Below, piece after piece: positions 6,316-45,978 of a stretch of 64,000 bases of DNA (positions are counted from its first letter, which is position 1; every line of letters starts with the position of its first letter). Both the position numbers and the translations under genes were made by a program. Source of the stretch: an uncultured Clostridia bacterium (GTDB lineage Bacteria > Bacillota > Clostridia > Oscillospirales > Acutalibacteraceae); NCBI GenBank assembly GCA_947630835.1, contig CANRIZ010000014.1, positions 1 to 64,000 on the forward strand. The letters are read 5' to 3'. The notes under the pieces were generated by a model, which was not told where the DNA came from, made no database searches, and was given only the letters and a program-made list of their open reading frames with translations.

Positions 6316-6606
6316 TTACCACTCAACCCACTCCATATCTGCCTCAGCTTCCCAAAATGTTTTGCCTTCAAAAATAGGCTCATTTTGGGCAAGCTCTAAG
6401 CATTTTTCTAAAGTGGAAGCTGTTTTGTTAAACACGGTTTTAGAATAGTTCCCGTTTTTGTCCCAAGTGTCAATCACATAAGAGTATTCATTCTTTTCTT
6501 TATCAAATATAAGACCGTGAAAAAAGTATTTCACGTCTTTATATATCACAGCACATTCCTCAAATGTGGTTTGGTCAATAAATTTGTATACATTTCCGCC
6601 TTTCAT
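6316..6606 (-). CDS. small 'FWEVE'-type partner protein, island 1
   Basis: C-terminus 'IFEGKTFWEAEADMEWVEW' matches paralogues at 41961, 42652 and 43337; 4-bp overlap with the upstream MGGRGTF gene. Confidence 0.75.
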   Translation of the reverse strand: MKGGNVYKFIDQTTFEECAVIYKDVKYFFHGLIFDKEKNEYSYVIDTWDKNGNYSKTVFNKTASTLEKCLELAQNEPIFEGKTFWEAEADMEWVEW

Positions 6607-6980
6607 AAATTCAGCCCCTTAAAATATTTTTTGTATTTTTTATATTCGTTCTTTGTCAATAGTCGCGGTGTTCTATCAGCAAATTTGTCTCGCTTATATT
6701 CGTGAATATGCAATACCGGATTATGATTTCCCGTCAAATTAGGTTCCGGATGATATGCAATTTCTCTTACAAGATAATGGTCTTTATCATATTCTCTGTA
6801 CATCTTAAATTTCCCGTCAGGATGTAATTGTATATAAGCACCACTTGAATGTGCTTCTGCCGGTAATCCTTTTGAATTGCCGTCTTTGCCTTGCAATACT
6901 TTCACACCGTCAATTTTTCCAACAGTTTCATATGTATATGCAATATTATTACCTGCCGCAAATGTACCTCTGCCGCCCAT
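6603..6980 (-). CDS. 'MGGRGTF' family small protein, island 1
   Basis: MGGRGTFAAGNNIAYTYETVGKIDGVKVL...LPAEAHSSGAYIQL...EIAYHPEP...PVLHIHEY...LTKNEYKKYKKYFKG; closely similar to the copies at 42935 and 43612. Confidence 0.8.
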   Translation of the reverse strand: MGGRGTFAAGNNIAYTYETVGKIDGVKVLQGKDGNSKGLPAEAHSSGAYIQLHPDGKFKMYREYDKDHYLVREIAYHPEPNLTGNHNPVLHIHEYKRDKFADRTPRLLTKNEYKKYKKYFKGLNL

Positions 6981-6981
6981 A

Positions 6982-7605
6982 TCAGCGCACCACCTTTCTT
7001 GAAGATTGGTAGTCCACCGACACGATGTTTCCTTCCATTTCGGGAAACGGAGTACCGAGCACGATGATTTTATCGGGTTGCAAACGCTCTAACATTTCGT
7101 TGTAACCACGCATAAAGCCTATACGGGAACTTTTACACCCGATCATACCAACGGCAACCGTGCCGCCTTGCTCTACGCCGTCAAAACAAAATTCAAAGCT
7201 ACGGGCATCACTCCAACTGATAGTCGGGATAACTGTTTTGCCCTTACTTTGCCAATATGCACCCACCCAACGATTTTTTGCAACGCTTTCAAGCTGCCGC
7301 CATAAATCCATATCGGCGTAGGTTGAAAAATCGGGAGTAAGCAGAAACGCATATTGAGAATAGCGTTTCAATGAACGATCGGGGTTATCATATGTTCCCG
7401 AAAAACGATAATCGTCAACAAAGAAATGCACGCCTTTTTTCTTGTTTACATCGTTATCGTTCATCTTTGTGTCAGAGCAGGCTATCAACATAATATCATC
7501 GGTAGATAGCGATTGTTTCTTGACAAGGGGTACACCCCACTTGCCAACGGGCGTAAAAGAATTTCGCATAAAAAGAGGGTTGCCCCTCATAACTTTACTT
7601 GTCAT
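6982..7605 (-). CDS. DUF4417-like protein, island 1
   Basis: Strongly similar to the island-2 protein at 43997-44620 (RxxPLFMRNS..., KKGVHFFVDDYRFSGxYDxPxRSLxRYSQYAFLLTPDFSTYxDMDLWRQ). DUF4417 name assigned from recalled family features. Confidence 0.7.
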   Translation of the reverse strand: MTSKVMRGNPLFMRNSFTPVGKWGVPLVKKQSLSTDDIMLIACSDTKMNDNDVNKKKGVHFFVDDYRFSGTYDNPDRSLKRYSQYAFLLTPDFSTYADMDLWRQLESVAKNRWVGAYWQSKGKTVIPTISWSDARSFEFCFDGVEQGGTVAVGMIGCKSSRIGFMRGYNEMLERLQPDKIIVLGTPFPEMEGNIVSVDYQSSRKVVR

Positions 7606-7685
7606 ATTATGACACCTCCGGAATTATATATGTTTTTTGAATGACTTTTTCACAGCAGAAAATCGAACATTTTGTACGATTACTG

Positions 7686-7797
7686 TTGCATTTTTCTCCG
7701 GAATGTGCTAATATATATTTACCAAAATACGAATGGGCACATTCGGAGATTAACACTGTATTGATTGCGCAACAATCTGTACAGTGTTTTCTTTTTT
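7686..7797 (+). ncRNA. putative small RNA / structured element between immA-like and DUF4417 genes, island 1
   Basis: Plus-strand TTGCAT-17 nt-TAATAT (7686-7714), then CGAAT-GGGCAC-ATTCG hairpin and terminator-like hairpin CACTGTA...TACAGTG (7754-7786) with TTTTCTTTTTT. Also a dyad 7695-7708/7737-7749. Same architecture at 44700-44807. Confidence 0.5.
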
Positions 7798-7845
7798 GCT
7801 TTTCAACAATCAATTCACAACACCGTCCTTTCCATTAATTTTATA

Positions 7846-8394
7846 TTACACAGCCACTTTGAAAAGCTGAAGCAATCGTATTTCGTAATTGGTATAATCC
7901 TTATTGCCGTAAGTCAACCATTTGCGATAGTAAGAGAAGACGTAGTTTGCTGCTTCAAGACTGATGTCAAAATGCTTGTAAACCTCGTGAGCATCCTTTA
8001 ATTCCAACTTATGTATGAGTACGGGCGGAGCAAGAGCGTATTTTGCAAAGAATTTCGCTTCAGCTTCAGCCAATTCGCTTTCTTCGGTGTGATCCAAGAC
8101 AATATGCCCACATTCGTGACTTATGGTGTTGTTAATACGCCTGTAGCTTTTTGCATCGTTATAAAAAATGTACCACACGCCGTCTTTTCTGACAGAGAAT
8201 CCGTCTTCGCTTTCTTGCATCATAAGTTGACATGCTTCTTCGGATTTTGAGGAATAAGGGACTACAATTGCGCCAAGTTTTGTTGCCATTTCAAAACCGC
8301 TTATAGGAATGCAGCGAATATTAAGTTCTTCAAAAGTGTTGACAACAATCTCTTTGATTTCCTCACAGCGCTTATCGGATAATTTAAATGCCAA
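7846..8394 (-). CDS. ImmA/IrrE family metallo-endopeptidase, island 1
   Basis: HExxH motif 'NNTISHECGHIVLDHTEESELAEAEAKFFAKYALAPP'. Confidence 0.9.
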   Translation of the reverse strand: MAFKLSDKRCEEIKEIVVNTFEELNIRCIPISGFEMATKLGAIVVPYSSKSEEACQLMMQESEDGFSVRKDGVWYIFYNDAKSYRRINNTISHECGHIVLDHTEESELAEAEAKFFAKYALAPPVLIHKLELKDAHEVYKHFDISLEAANYVFSYYRKWLTYGNKDYTNYEIRLLQLFKVAV

Positions 8395-8396
8395 TA

Positions 8397-8708
8397 TTAA
8401 TCCTCCCCGAACAGAGCAGAAATCAGCGCCCGTTTTTGCTTTTCCGTCATTGTTGCGGAGTTCCTTGCCAATAAACGCTCTACCTTTGGGAAATTGAAAT
8501 TATCGGGCTCTATACCAAGCAGATAATCCGATGTTGTATGCAAAGCGGTGGCAATATTCGCAAGCATATCCGCTTTTGGCTCCCTGTCACCGGAAACATA
8601 ACGAGAGAGCGTCGCTTCGGTTGTGTTAATTCTGTCGGCAAGCTCTTTTTGCGTTATACCTTGTTTTTGCAATAGGCTTGATAACCTTTGTCCAAATGCT
8701 TTACTCAT
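8397..8708 (-). CDS. XRE-family HTH regulator, island 1
   Basis: 'LSSLLQKQGITQKELADRINTTEATLSRYVSGDREPKADMLANIATAL'. Confidence 0.92.
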   Translation of the reverse strand: MSKAFGQRLSSLLQKQGITQKELADRINTTEATLSRYVSGDREPKADMLANIATALHTTSDYLLGIEPDNFNFPKVERLLARNSATMTEKQKRALISALFGED

Positions 8709-41788: not shown

Positions 41789-41820
41789 AAAATCCCCTGA
41801 ATTGATTTCAGGGGATTTTT
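41789..41820 (+). terminator. intrinsic terminator
   Basis: AATCCCCTGAA-TTGA-TTTCAGGGGATTTTT. Confidence 0.75.
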
Positions 41821-41960
41821 GATTGGTAATAGGGAAATTTTAATGCAATATAATTTTTTCGTTCATTTTTTAGCTTCTGTATAATCTCATAAAAAGTATT
41901 ATTACGGTCGCATGTAACAAATATTACTCCGTTATTATAAGTATCACTTTTTATCAGAAC

Positions 41961-42251
41961 TTAACCGAATAAGACTGTGATATCTTGTTCTGCCTCGTAA
42001 ATGGTTCTTCCGTCAAAAAGTTTGGCTTTCTCAAATTGCTTAACACATTCGGCATGATTTTTGCCGTGACAACGAAAAATGTAATTCTCATCTCCAAAGC
42101 ATTCGAATATTACAAATTCCACAAGCGTCGTATCATTCTCGTATACCTGGGATTCCATAAAATACCGTTTTCCGTTATACTCAAACTCTTTTTCCGGACC
42201 GCCCATTGTCAATAAATCGTTGATAAATTCAGCTAAAGTATTTCCTTTCAT
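41961..42251 (-). CDS. 'FWEVE'-type small partner protein, island 2 copy 3 (divergent)
   Basis: 'MKGNTLAEFINDLL...EKAKLFDGRTIYEAEQDITVLFG' aligns with the C-terminal motif of the other copies. Confidence 0.7.
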   Translation of the reverse strand: MKGNTLAEFINDLLTMGGPEKEFEYNGKRYFMESQVYENDTTLVEFVIFECFGDENYIFRCHGKNHAECVKQFEKAKLFDGRTIYEAEQDITVLFG

Positions 42252-42257
42252 CAATGG

Positions 42258-42637
42258 TTACCCCTTAAAAAATGATTTGTATCGTTTATATTCGGTGCGT
42301 GTTAATTTGCGCTTCACAGTAGTTGGGGAATTATGATAATCTATTCCCGGCTTTTGATGAATATGAATATGCAGCAATCCCCTTTGCCGAGACTCGGTTC
42401 ATGATGATACCCAATTTCCAAAGTAATTTCGTGATTTTCGTTATATTCTCGATATTGATGAAAAACGCCGTCTTTATCGAGAAGAATATAACTAAAACTC
42501 GAATGTGCCTCTTCGGGCAATTTATAGGATTTAGATTTATCAATAGGTTGCAAAACTTTAACACCATTGATTTCGTCAACAATTTCGAAAGTATAAGGAA
42601 CCGGATTTCCGCTTGCAAAAGTACCTCTTCCACCCAT
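42258..42637 (-). pseudogene. 'MGGRGTF' family gene, island 2 copy 3, frameshifted
   Basis: MGGRGTFASGNPVPYTFEIV...EIGYHHEPSLGKG, then frame lost; a third frame continues as LLHIHIHQKPGIDYHNSPTTVKRKLTRTEYKRYKSFFKG* (stop 42258-42260), matching the family C-terminus. Confidence 0.8.
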
Positions 42638-42651
42638 ATCAGCGCACCACC

Positions 42652-42942
42652 TTAACAATCTACCCACTGCATATCCTTTTCAACTTCCCAGAAGGTTTTT
42701 CCGTTCCAAATTTTTGCATTTTCAAAGTCGGTAATACAATCTGAAACAGACAACCGAGAAGTTGAGAAGATAGTAGAGCTACAGGTAAGATTATAGATTT
42801 CAAGCACTACCTTAATAATTTTTCCCTTTTCGTCCTTTGTAACTTGGCAGCCGTTGAAAAAGAATTTTTTGCCGTCATATATTACATAGTGGTCTTCATA
42901 AGATAATTTATCAATGAAATCTTTTGCATTTCCGTCAATCAT
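42652..42942 (-). CDS. 'FWEVE'-type small partner protein, island 2 copy 2
   Basis: 'MIDGNAKDFIDKLSYEDHYVIYDGKKFFFNG...FENAKIWNGKTFWEVEKDMQWVDC'. Confidence 0.75.
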   Translation of the reverse strand: MIDGNAKDFIDKLSYEDHYVIYDGKKFFFNGCQVTKDEKGKIIKVVLEIYNLTCSSTIFSTSRLSVSDCITDFENAKIWNGKTFWEVEKDMQWVDC

Positions 42943-43321
42943 ACCATTTTCGTCCTTTCATATATTTTTTGTATTTTTCAAAAGTTTGTCTGTCCAAATA
43001 TTGAGCAGGCCCGTGAGTAAAATCCTTATCGTAATAATGAATGTGAAGCACAGGATCATGATGCCCCGTTAGTCGAGGTTCGGGATGATAGGCAATTTCC
43101 ATTTTCAGCATATGATCTTCCTTGCCGTAAATTCTAAGCATACCCATTGTTCCGTCTTTGTGGAGCTTTAAGTACATTTCGCTTGAATGTGCTTCGGCGG
43201 GGAGATCATGTAAACCGGTTCCCGGTATTCCTATGAGGACTTTTACGCCATCATATTTATCGACAGTCTGATATGTATAAGGAACCGGATTTCCTGCCGC
43301 AAAAGTACCTCTTCCGCCCAT
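42935..43321 (-). CDS. 'MGGRGTF' family small protein, island 2 copy 2
   Basis: MGGRGTFAAGNPVPYTYQTVDKYDGVKVL...LPAEAHSSEMYLKL...EIAYHPEPRLTGHHDPVLHIHYY. Confidence 0.8.
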   Translation of the reverse strand: MGGRGTFAAGNPVPYTYQTVDKYDGVKVLIGIPGTGLHDLPAEAHSSEMYLKLHKDGTMGMLRIYGKEDHMLKMEIAYHPEPRLTGHHDPVLHIHYYDKDFTHGPAQYLDRQTFEKYKKYMKGRKWYD

Positions 43322-43336
43322 ATCAGCACACCACCC

Positions 43337-43615
43337 TTAACAGTCTACCCACTGCATATCCTTTTCAACTTCCCAAAAGGATTTCCCACCGAAGATTTTT
43401 GCGCTGACAAACTCTGAAACGGGATAGTTTTTATCTTTTGAATAGGCACGCCATTCAAAACGGCTGTCAGAAGGTTCCAAAACATAAAGCTCCAGCGTCG
43501 GTGTTTTGTTTTCCAAATAGCCTTGTATAAAATATTTATTCCCGTTGTAGAGAAAAAAACGCTCATCGCCATAATACAGACCATCGATAAACTCTTGTGC
43601 ATTTCCGTTTATCAA
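43337..43615 (-). CDS. 'FWEVE'-type small partner protein, island 2 copy 1
   Basis: 'MINGNAQEFIDGLYYGDERFFLYNGNKYFIQG...SAKIFGGKSFWEVEKDMQWVDC'; C-terminus same as copy 2. Confidence 0.75.
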   Translation of the reverse strand: MINGNAQEFIDGLYYGDERFFLYNGNKYFIQGYLENKTPTLELYVLEPSDSRFEWRAYSKDKNYPVSEFVSAKIFGGKSFWEVEKDMQWVDC

Positions 43616-43995
43616 GATAATTTCACTCCCTTCAAATATTTTTTATACCTTTTAATTTCTTCCGATGTCATCAAACGTGGCGTTCGGTCTTGAAAATTGT
43701 CTCTGCTATATTCATGAATATGTAGAACATTCTCCGATCTATTTCCATTGTTCAATTTCGGCTCCGGGTGATATGCAATCTCTCGAATGAGATAGTGGTC
43801 TTTGTCATAAAAACGCATTTCATGGAATGTGCCGTCTGGTTTTAGTTTGATATAAGCGCTGCTAGAATGTGCTTCGTCGGGCAGACTGTGCTTCCCGTTT
43901 ATCCCTTCTAAAACCTTTACATCCTCAATATAGCCGACGGTTTTGTATGTATAATCCACTGGATTTCCTACCGCGAAAGTACCTCTTCCTCCCAT
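43612..43995 (-). CDS. 'MGGRGTF' family small protein, island 2 copy 1
   Basis: MGGRGTFAVGNPVDYTYKTVGYIEDVKVLEG...LPDEAHSSSAYIKLKPDGTFHEMRFYDKDHYLIREIAYHPEP...VLHIHEYSRDNFQDRTPRLMT. Confidence 0.8.
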   Translation of the reverse strand: MGGRGTFAVGNPVDYTYKTVGYIEDVKVLEGINGKHSLPDEAHSSSAYIKLKPDGTFHEMRFYDKDHYLIREIAYHPEPKLNNGNRSENVLHIHEYSRDNFQDRTPRLMTSEEIKRYKKYLKGVKLS

Positions 43996-43996
43996 G

Positions 43997-44620
43997 TCAC
44001 CGCACCACCTTTCTTGAAGACAGATAGTCTACCGGTACAATATTGCCCTTCATCTCGGGAAACGGCGTACCGAAAACGATGATTTTTTCGGGCTGTAACC
44101 GCTCGAGCATTTCGTTATAACCGCGCAAAAAGCCAAGGCGGGAACGCTTGCACCCGATCATACCCACAGCGACTGTTCCGCTTTGCTCGACGCCGTCAAA
44201 GCAGAATTCAAAACTGCGGCTGTCGCTCCAGCTGATGGTTGGAACCACCCTCAATCCTTTGCTTTGCCAATACGCACCTACCCAGCGATTTTTCCCAACA
44301 CTTTCGATCTGCCGCCACAAATCCATATCGGAGTATGTCGAGAAATCCGGTGTAAGCAAAAATGCATATTGAGAGTATCTCCTTAGCGAGCGTTCGGGAT
44401 GATCATATATTCCGCTGAACCGATAATCGTCAACAAAAAAGTGAACGCCTTTTTTCTTGTTTCCTTCGCTATCATTTGACCTTGTGTCGGAACATGCCAC
44501 TAAGTTGATTTTGTCAAAAGGAAGATTTTGCCTTTTAACAATGGGGATACCCCATTTTCCTGCGGTTTCATAAGAGTTCCGCATAAAAAGCGGATCTTCA
44601 CGCATCTGTTTACTTTTCAT
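43997..44620 (-). CDS. DUF4417-like protein, island 2
   Basis: Strong similarity to 6982-7605 along its whole length; start trimmed to MKSKQMREDPLFMRNS by comparison. Confidence 0.7.
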   Translation of the reverse strand: MKSKQMREDPLFMRNSYETAGKWGIPIVKRQNLPFDKINLVACSDTRSNDSEGNKKKGVHFFVDDYRFSGIYDHPERSLRRYSQYAFLLTPDFSTYSDMDLWRQIESVGKNRWVGAYWQSKGLRVVPTISWSDSRSFEFCFDGVEQSGTVAVGMIGCKRSRLGFLRGYNEMLERLQPEKIIVFGTPFPEMKGNIVPVDYLSSRKVVR

Positions 44621-44699
44621 AATGAGTATAATCCTTTCCGGGATCATTACGGAAACGGCATTGGATCCCGTGCTTTTGTTGAAAATTTACCGCTTCCAC

Positions 44700-44807
44700 T
44701 TGATTTTTGCCCCGAAATATGTTATACTCAAAAAGCCAAGACGAATATAACAGTATTCGGGGAATTGCATCGTTATAACTGCTCGAACAGCTATAACGGT
44801 GCTTTTT
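44700..44807 (+). ncRNA. putative small RNA / structured element, island 2 (counterpart of 7686-7797)
   Basis: Plus-strand TTGATT-17 nt-TATACT (44700-44728), CGAAT-ATAACAGT-ATTCG hairpin, terminator-like hairpin 44767-44802 (GCATCGTTATA...TATAACGGTGC) plus TTTTT. Also dyad CCCCGAAATATGTTATA (44710-44726) / TATAACAGTATTCGGGG (44746-44762). Confidence 0.5.
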
Positions 44808-44862
44808 CTGTATATAAGTTAATCATAAAGATATTCCTCCTTTCCGTTCATTCACAGCGCAC

Positions 44863-45387
44863 TTAATAAGTCAACCGTTTCTTTGCGGCGGACTCCGATA
44901 CGCCGTAGACCTGCATTATTTCTTCTTTTGTCATTCCTTTTGTGCTCTCATAAGGCATCATGACTTCTCCTGCAAGGGCCATAACGATCCATTCTAAACG
45001 CTTATATGCAGGAGTTTCCTTTGTTAATTGGCGTGAAAAAATGGGCTTGAATCCGAGTTTGTCGGCAAACGGGTGCATAATTTCGTGAATGATGTGCATT
45101 CTGTGTCCGCCGATTTTCTTCTCATATGCACCTTTATATACGGAATCTTTTATTTGTATGAGATAACCGTCTTCGGTTTTTACGCATTGTGCCGGAACAT
45201 TACCAGGAAGTTCGTCGTTATATACTATCGTGTACCTGACATCTTCAAAGCCCTCAAAATCGGGGAGCCTGTCAAGAAGTTTCACTGGGTCAATCGATTC
45301 ATCTTGCGTTAAGCCGCATATTGAGCGAAAGAGTTTTGCATATAAGCGAAGTTCGTGTCGGTTAGTCGGTTTCGTCTCGTAATCCAC
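44863..45387 (-). CDS. ImmA/IrrE family metallo-endopeptidase, island 2
   Basis: 'GHRMHIIHEIMHPFADKLGFKPIFSRQLTKETPAYKRLEWIVMALAGEVMMP'; little obvious identity to the island-1 protein. Confidence 0.8.
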   Translation of the reverse strand: MDYETKPTNRHELRLYAKLFRSICGLTQDESIDPVKLLDRLPDFEGFEDVRYTIVYNDELPGNVPAQCVKTEDGYLIQIKDSVYKGAYEKKIGGHRMHIIHEIMHPFADKLGFKPIFSRQLTKETPAYKRLEWIVMALAGEVMMPYESTKGMTKEEIMQVYGVSESAAKKRLTY

Positions 45388-45755
45388 TACTCATCCTCCT
45401 TGTTCAGGAGTTTCATAATGGCTTCAGCGGTATCTTCGTCAAGATTCTCAAAGGATCTCTGAAATTGAACAGCGAGCTGCCTCTGGGTGTTAGACGCGGA
45501 GGTAAGATTTATTTTCATTTGCGTCTTAGACGACTCAATGGCATCAAGCAATTCCGCTTTTTTCTCCGAATCCAGCTTATAATGCTCTACGATTTTCGGA
45601 ATCCACTCTTCCGGAACATTCCTTTTTCCGCTTTCGACGGTGGAAACAAAAGGGATCTTTACTTCCAGCATCTTTGCGGTGTCGCCCATAACCTCATGTG
45701 CTTTTACCCTAAGTACACGCATAAATTCTCCGTATTTTGTATATGCCATTTTCAA
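45387..45755 (-). CDS. HTH (XRE-like) regulator, island 2
   Basis: 'YGEFMRVLRVKAHEVMGDTAKMLEVKIPFVSTVESGKRNVPEEWIPKIVEHYKL'; 1-bp overlap with immA-like gene. Confidence 0.8.
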   Translation of the reverse strand: MKMAYTKYGEFMRVLRVKAHEVMGDTAKMLEVKIPFVSTVESGKRNVPEEWIPKIVEHYKLDSEKKAELLDAIESSKTQMKINLTSASNTQRQLAVQFQRSFENLDEDTAEAIMKLLNKEDE

Positions 45756-45769
45756 TTCCTCCCTTTCCG

Positions 45770-45805
45770 GTTGATTATATCATGGGTTAACTTGCTTGTC
45801 AAGAA
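45770..45805 (-). promoter_or_regulatory. promoter of island-2 regulator operon
   Basis: Minus strand TTGACA-AGCAAGTTAACCCATGA (17)-TATAAT. Confidence 0.65.
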
Positions 45806-45945
45806 AAATTTAACAAGCTTTTGATTAAATTATTTAACTAATAAAATTTGCAAATTTTTTTTCATTATCACTTATTGCGGTGGGTTCCTATATTAGGGCT
45901 ATCCGTAGACTTTTTACTTTTTGACAGAAATATATTTCTACACAA

Positions 45946-45978
45946 AAAATCCCCTGAAGCTGTGGCTTCGGGGGATTA
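45946..45978 (-). terminator. intrinsic terminator for the 46015-46788 gene
   Basis: Minus strand AATCCCCCGAAGC-cac-AGCTTCAGGGGATTTTTTG. Confidence 0.65.

What the first reader, a model, noticed from the sequence alone, without database searches (positions are those of the whole stretch)
41961..45805. Island 2: same core with three tandem MGGRGTF/FWEVE pairs
After the DUF4417-like gene come three alternating MGGRGTF and FWEVE genes with short overlaps. Within pairs the FWEVE N-terminal halves vary while the C-terminal 'FWEVEKDMQWVDC' is kept, and MGGRGTF proteins keep their N-terminal and EAHSS motifs. Expansion of a two-gene unit with a variable part resembles toxin/immunity or effector/inhibitor cassette arrays, though function is unproven.
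Basis: partly seen in the sequence, partly recalled or inferred. Interest (0 to 1): 0.72.

Follow-up and report, generated by a model that had tools for sequence, protein, structure and literature searches.

The report
DUF4417-linked toxin–immunity pair array
A gut Clostridia bacterium carries a small, recently acquired operon that stacks three matched gene pairs, very probably small toxins each with its own antidote, behind a gene of unknown function (DUF4417) that turns out to be a common partner of bacterial and phage toxins.

Summary
In detail: on the minus strand, 45802→41789, one operon runs consensus promoter – XRE regulator – M78/ImmA-like peptidase – DUF4417 – three M(MGGRGTF)/F(FWEVE) pairs – terminator. 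Corrections: M3 is frameshifted; F3 lacks the FWEVE motif; the variable part of F is its middle third, that of M its C-terminal third.

The toxin–immunity reading is supported computationally. M and F covary as cognate pairs (r=0.77; 0.75 after controlling for DUF4417), most strongly between M's C-terminus and F. F genes outnumber M; broken M3 keeps an intact F3. In L045 a truncated F joins a DUF4417 3' end just before the second M, a cassette-recombination scar. Both islands are absent from the closest relative.

Wider finding: DUF4417 genes in Clostridia and phages are followed by, or fused to, known toxin domains (EndoU, Ntox50, barnase-type RNase with barstar, AHH with Imm11, ADP-ribosyltransferase in cluster A mycobacteriophages), commonly through a glycine-rich joint resembling 'MGGRG'. 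I found no paper linking DUF4417 to toxins.

Best reading: a DUF4417-partnered polymorphic toxin system with a new toxin family (M) and immunity family (F). Toxicity, target and delivery are untested. Streptococcal-phage relatives of M sit before terminase genes without visible immunity.

The parts
45774..45802 (-). Promoter TTGACA-17-TATAAT with TG before the -10
   Evidence: 12 of 12 consensus matches, the best in the region; the same TTGACA/TATAAT layout precedes XRE in other loci
45810..45828 (-). Candidate operator, TTAATC-N8-GTTAA, just upstream of -35
   Evidence: Degenerate form of the inverted repeat TTAACC-N6/7-GGTTAA seen at the same place in loci L007, L012, L017, L023, L050; function inferred
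45387..45755 (-). XRE-type HTH regulator
   Evidence: HTH_31 1.9e-4, below the Pfam cut-off; clear relatives in the same position in 18 of 53 loci
44863..45387 (-). M78/ImmA-IrrE-like metallopeptidase
   Evidence: PF06114 3.8e-5, above cut-off; relatives in 26 of 53 loci
43997..44647 (-). DUF4417 protein, proposed toxin partner/carrier
   Evidence: PF14386 1.4e-49; phrog_940 'nuclease' matched only at profile positions 154-337 of 388
43612..43995 (-). M1, proposed toxin (MGGRGTF family)
   Evidence: ATG directly behind the DUF4417 stop codon
43337..43615 (-). F1, proposed immunity protein
   Evidence: overlaps M1 by 4 nt
42935..43321 (-). M2, proposed toxin
42652..42942 (-). F2, proposed immunity protein
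   Evidence: overlaps M2 by 8 nt
42341..42637 (-). M3, frameshifted toxin gene, C-terminus lost
   Evidence: The family's C-terminal sequence continues in another frame
41961..42254 (-). F3, intact immunity protein of a different type (GRTIYEAE)
   Evidence: closest to the F beside M3-like proteins in L014, L016 and L045
41789..41819 (-). Terminator closing the operon and left edge of the island
   Evidence: synteny with relative G001 ends here
41819..45934 (.). Island 2 as an insertion between two convergent genes
   Evidence: Flanks are joined without the island in G001 (247 bp of other sequence between them) and G036 (109 bp between the genes)
6316..6606 (-). F0, immunity protein of island 1
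6603..6980 (-). M0, toxin of island 1
6982..7605 (-). DUF4417 of island 1
   Evidence: 80% identical to the island 2 copy
7846..8394 (-). ImmA/M78-like peptidase of island 1
   Evidence: HECGH motif read directly; not family-searched
8397..8708 (-). XRE-type regulator of island 1
   Evidence: by sequence reading; not family-searched

Best explanation
Each MGGRGTF/FWEVE pair is a toxin (M) with its own cytoplasmic immunity protein (F). The pairs are exchangeable cassettes placed behind DUF4417, a conserved partner protein that works with many unrelated toxin domains. Shown by sequence: one operon with promoter, operator-like repeat and terminator; cognate M-F covariation; surplus and orphan F genes; a cassette recombination scar; insertion into an otherwise empty site; DUF4417 beside or fused to known toxins with known immunity proteins. 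Inferred: M is an intracellularly acting, probably metal-independent nuclease (near-invariant R61, Y63, E72, Y75, H76, H92, H94, Y96); the glycine-rich MGGRG leader is the part that engages or follows DUF4417; the XRE/M78 pair keeps the operon off until a signal triggers it, as ImmR/ImmA does in ICEs and prophages (established knowledge of that pair); DUF4417 escorts the toxin, by virion packaging in phages, by an unknown route here. Extra pairs widen the weapon set, or keep immunity against relatives' toxins.
For: Covariation: M-F r=0.77, M-DUF4417 0.55, F-DUF4417 0.31, partial M-F 0.75. M residues 77-127 track F best (0.74) and M1-33 worst (0.50); F diverges more than M in 99% of comparisons. 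F>M in 7 loci; every M>F case has a local reason (contig end, broken M, diverged F or F-like neighbour) except viral contig L125. M3 broken with F3 kept. L045: truncated F start joined to a DUF4417 3' end before the second M. DUF4417-linked known toxins: Ntox50 1.4e-27; DUF4417-RNase fusion with barstar next door; AHH fusion with Imm11; EndoU in 4 of 38, including this genome's third DUF4417; ADP-ribosyltransferase in mycobacteriophages. Upstream-gene control: no toxin family among those listed except one Fic. Glycine-rich start in 22 of 29 separate next genes against 7.8% of ORFs. Mixed arrays: M/F beside Ntox50 or EndoU genes in L012, L020, L038.
Against: M matches no known toxin family in Pfam, NCBIfam or PADLOC, and its predicted fold has no clear PDB match. 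Streptococcal-phage MGGRGSSSG proteins, remote relatives of M (hhalign probability 80%, E 1.3e-5), lie between DUF4417 and terminase with no obvious immunity gene. No secretion or phage structural genes were identified near the islands. No experiment supports toxicity.
Confidence: 0.78

Rival explanations
1. A self-acting defence or addiction module: the toxin kills or arrests its own cell when the XRE/M78 switch senses phage or DNA damage, with F as antitoxin. No delivery to other cells.
For: XRE+M78 or Fic upstream in many loci; a single promoter with a conserved operator-like repeat; chromosomal, patchy islands without delivery genes.
Against: No PADLOC match for any toxin-side gene. Diversifying cognate pairs, orphan immunity and toxin swapping are typical of inter-cell polymorphic toxins. 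Mycobacteriophages pair DUF4417 with a toxin gene just before minor tail genes, which suggests delivery.
Confidence: 0.3
2. A phage packaging or virion accessory module taken over by the host: DUF4417 and MGGRG proteins act at the terminase/head and M is not toxic; F is a regulator or inhibitor of M.
For: DUF4417-MGGRG genes immediately precede the terminase in streptococcal, Dorea and Roseburia phages, with no immunity gene seen.
Against: The same slot carries EndoU, barnase-type RNase with barstar, AHH with Imm11 and ADP-ribosyltransferase. M-F cognate covariation and F surplus. The one full-length phage-collection hit for M lies on a bacterial contig.
Confidence: 0.12
3. The roles are reversed: F is the toxin and M its inhibitor.
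For: The two genes are nearly always adjacent and both diverge; nothing biochemical fixes the direction.
Against: F occurs without M or in excess in 7 loci, and M3 is broken while F3 is intact. M occupies the slot of known toxins after DUF4417; the genes that follow those toxins include barstar and Imm11.
Confidence: 0.05

Closest known systems
MuF polymorphic toxins of temperate phages (Jamet et al. 2017, PMC5576092)
   Same: A phage-linked N-terminal domain joined to varied C-terminal toxins, with a small presumed immunity ORF next; shared toxin kinds such as Ntox50 and EndoU.
   Different: The carrier is DUF4417, not MuF; the toxin is often a separate polypeptide that starts with a glycine-rich leader; the loci here are chromosomal and have no recognised head genes nearby.
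Polymorphic toxin systems with cassette replacement (CDI/Rhs/MafB; Zhang et al. 2012, PMC3482391)
   Same: Toxin-then-immunity order, variable C-terminus, tandem cassettes, orphan immunity genes, recombination at a conserved 5' part.
   Different: No large secreted N-terminal protein; DUF4417 is not mentioned in the held text of that survey; each downstream cassette keeps its own start codon.
ParB-DUF4417 fusion proteins of phages (PNAS 2025, PMC12704722; phrog_940 'nuclease')
   Same: Share the DUF4417 domain and a prophage association.
   Different: The passages read treat DUF4417 as unknown and do not connect it to toxins; the proteins here lack ParB, so the label 'nuclease' should not be carried over.
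Barnase-barstar
   Same: DUF4417 is fused to a barnase-type RNase with barstar as the next gene in one relative (L092): the same gene logic.
   Different: M and F show no sequence match to either family.

Membership tests
Polymorphic toxin systems | Variable C-terminal toxin region behind a conserved part | tested here: met
   M77-127 44% identity against 62-63% in M1-76; DUF4417 slot with several toxin kinds
Polymorphic toxin systems | Cognate immunity gene immediately downstream | tested here: met
   By sequence covariation only: partial M-F correlation 0.75; 263/316 within-locus agreement. Binding and protection not tested
Polymorphic toxin systems | Cassette exchange by recombination, orphan immunity genes | tested here: met
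   L045 scar; surplus F; M3 broken with F3 intact
Polymorphic toxin systems | Recognised toxin domain in the protein itself | tested here: inconclusive
   M has no Pfam/NCBIfam/PADLOC hit; other DUF4417-linked proteins do
Polymorphic toxin systems | Known trafficking/secretion domain or apparatus | tested here: inconclusive
   None recognised; DUF4417 is a candidate; the flanking-gene tally shows 25 of 123 families only, without secretion or phage structural genes
Polymorphic toxin systems | Demonstrated toxicity neutralised by the immunity protein | not testable with these tools
   Needs expression in a laboratory strain
MuF phage toxins | MuF head domain fused to the toxin | tested here: not met
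   No MuF match in the operon's proteins
Known anti-phage defence systems (PADLOC) | Match to PADLOC signature proteins | tested here: not met
   No relevant hit for any of the nine proteins; only a weak generic HTH and a chance-level Csm2 hit for the XRE gene
Type II toxin-antitoxin | Stable toxin and labile antitoxin acting in the same cell | not testable with these tools
   Needs expression and stability assays
ParB-type nuclease (phrog_940 label) | N-terminal ParB domain | tested here: not met
   216-aa protein matches only profile positions 154-337 of 388; Pfam finds DUF4417 alone

The most novel reading that the evidence does not exclude
DUF4417 defines an unrecognised toxin-delivery class: a carrier protein that recognises a glycine-rich leader (MGGRG, MGxGxSGxFxGTxGS, GMGSAYGG) and loads interchangeable toxins into phage particles. 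Chromosomal islands such as these would hitch a ride on resident phages, or act as a store of cassettes, under an ImmA-type damage switch.
Probability: 0.22. Interest if true: 0.85.

Novelty: new variant of a known kind. Interest (0 to 1): 0.64.

Why it matters
A domain of unknown function found in 479 phage records of one collection, 369 of them mycobacteriophages, gains a testable role as a toxin partner. The M and F families add a toxin/immunity pair that known-family searches miss, and the array gives ready-made cognate and non-cognate pairs for specificity tests. The mycobacteriophage cases can be tested in a standard laboratory host.

Tried and rejected
Fold searches of the M and F models gave no hit above background; PT7, a polymorphic toxin complex, appeared for M at Z 3.3 (rmsd 4.2, 55 residues), which is noise level. 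The profile of M against PDB sequences found only a weak HxHxY match to an unrelated protein. F against the immunity family of the fused DUF4417 proteins: suggestive (P 0.003, probability 11%) but not accepted; M against their toxin domain: nothing. PHROG 'tail assembly chaperone' for F (E 0.02) rejected as chance. The phage record MT835546 with an M gene was rejected as a phage: its genes are bacterial housekeeping genes. Viral contigs gave one M locus, L060; the scan with F could not be built. The idea that DUF4417 is a nuclease was not accepted, since the PHROG label comes from a profile that is matched only in its second half. No plasmid hit for M. DUF4417 against PDB sequences: only a weak partial match to trigger factor, E 0.02, not accepted.
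Full report
What is there. On the minus strand a single operon runs from a perfect TTGACA-17-TATAAT promoter (45802-45774) through an XRE regulator, an M78 (ImmA/IrrE-like) peptidase, a DUF4417 protein and three MGGRGTF/FWEVE pairs (M1/F1, M2/F2, M3/F3) to an intrinsic terminator at 41819-41789. M1 starts directly behind the DUF4417 stop codon. A second island at 6316-8708 has the same order with one pair. The genome holds four M copies, all in this window, and three DUF4417 genes.

Overlaps occur within pairs only. The 13-residue FWEVE tail is identical in F1 and F2 only. F is most variable in its middle third (18% mean identity), M in its C-terminal third (44%, against 62-63% before it). M3 is frameshifted near codon 86, and the family's C-terminal sequence continues in another frame; its F3 is intact. 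A sequencing error is possible.

Conservation. One scan of public genome contigs gave 53 loci with M, mostly DUF4417-M-F in order; M78-like genes are found in 26 and XRE in 18 of them (many contigs are cut). Six of 93 sampled flanking proteins are Fic-family, and in L005 the Fic gene stands directly upstream of DUF4417. Upstream of XRE an inverted repeat TTAACC-N6/7-GGTTAA next to TTGACA recurs between loci, which fits autoregulation.

Mobility. In the genus 3 of 39 genomes have M and 9 of 39 have DUF4417. In the closest relative, G001, the genes that flank island 2 are 415 bp apart, and in G036 109 bp; DNA synteny ends at 41818 and resumes at 45935. Island 1 is also missing in G001. No integrase is evident between the edges.

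Cognate pairing. Over 49 pairs, M and F distance matrices correlate at r=0.75 (permutation p 5e-4). In the 43 pairs with DUF4417: M-F 0.77, M-DUF4417 0.55, F-DUF4417 0.31, partial M-F 0.75. The window's pairs have different nearest relatives, and M and F agree on them: pair 1 with L005 (94/90%), pair 2 with L050 (89/81%), pair 3 with L014 (60/65%); pair 0 is closest to L013 in F and near it in M. In loci with several pairs, M and F agree in 263 of 316 comparisons (these are not independent). The M C-terminus tracks F best (0.74). F is less conserved than M in 99% of comparisons. These are the expected marks of a toxin and a faster-evolving specific inhibitor.

Asymmetry. Of 60 loci, 47 have equal numbers, 7 have more F and 6 more M by profile count. 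The six: a contig end (L034), a broken M split in pieces (L047), a diverged F (L059; F profile E 6.5e-4 on the longer locus), two remote MGGRG proteins followed by F-like genes (L112, L115; judged by eye), and viral contig L125 without one. In L045 the start of an F gene runs directly into the last codons of DUF4417, immediately before the second M. This is direct evidence that DUF4417-3'end/M/F pieces move as cassettes.

DUF4417 as toxin partner. In 46 non-redundant DUF4417 loci without M, 29 have a separate next gene and 12 a C-terminal extension of 100 residues or more. Of the 29, 22 start with at least three glycines in 14 residues (all ORFs: 7.8%). A Pfam tally of 38 such next genes or fusions (three doubtful neighbours left out, the correct frame of Trixie gp2 put in) gave EndoU 4, Ntox50 2, ADP-ribosyltransferase 1, AHH 1, glutamine deamidase toxin 1, barnase-type ribonuclease 1. 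Upstream genes of the same loci gave housekeeping genes, HTH, M78 and one Fic among the 25 families shown. The barnase-type fusion is followed by barstar and the AHH fusion by Imm11. This genome's third DUF4417 is followed by an EndoU protein. M/F pairs share loci with Ntox50 (L012, L020) and EndoU (L038) genes. In cluster A mycobacteriophages Trixie, Bugsy and First, DUF4417 precedes an ADP-ribosyltransferase toxin gene; in SWU1 the next gene is unannotated. The set is not a random sample, and some members are close relatives.

What M and F might be. The M model (pLDDT 87) is a small mostly-beta domain after a disordered 12-residue leader; the F model (pLDDT 96) is alpha-beta4-alpha-alpha. 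Neither has a clear relative in the PDB. Near-invariant R, Y, E, H and paired HxH residues in M would fit a nuclease, but this is inference.

Counter-evidence. Streptococcal and related phages carry DUF4417 and remote relatives of M (hhalign probability 80%, E 1.3e-5) just before the terminase, with no visible immunity gene. Either these are virion effectors that need no immunity in a lysing cell, or this branch is not toxic. M has no known toxin domain, and no delivery genes were recognised near the islands.

Literature. Only three papers in the held library name DUF4417, two of which were read at the passage and neither in connection with toxins; the 2012 polymorphic toxin survey and the polyvalent protein survey do not mention it in the held text. 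Subscription literature could not be searched.

Verdict. A new toxin/immunity family array within a broader DUF4417-linked polymorphic toxin class. The pairing is well supported; toxicity, target and delivery are open.

Noticed in passing
L068-L072, L075, L076, L080, L087, L089: DUF4417, a toxin-like domain (ERHYTDHxxPxAHTNPHDHxIxW) and an immunity-like domain lie in one continuous reading frame (about 440-490 aa); in L074 DUF4417 is a separate gene. A toxin fused to its own presumed immunity protein is unusual.
   Followed up: partly
L129, L161, L164 (mycobacteriophages Trixie, Bugsy, First): DUF4417 (annotated 'nuclease') is followed by an ADP-ribosyltransferase toxin gene and a small ORF at the left genome end, before an HNH gene and minor tail genes. 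The small ORF (gp3, called VIP2 in Trixie) may be the immunity gene.
   Followed up: partly
L005:3089-4165 and similar ORFs in other M loci: A Fic/DOC-family gene lies directly upstream of DUF4417 in L005, where XRE-M78 is missing; six of 93 sampled flanking proteins are Fic-family. Possibly an alternative control module.
   Followed up: partly
G000:C7:66273-66827 (L091): Third DUF4417 of this genome, with an M78-like gene upstream, an EndoU nuclease after it and a small acidic, immunity-like ORF.
   Followed up: yes
window 41789-41819 and 45945-45977: Island 2 sits between two similar terminator hairpins of convergent genes; in G001 the same two hairpins flank 247 bp of unrelated sequence, so the site may be an insertion hot spot.
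   Followed up: partly
MT835546.1 (L128): Deposited as a phage sequence, but ten large ORFs tested are bacterial housekeeping or metabolic genes; it is probably a bacterial chromosome fragment.
   Followed up: yes
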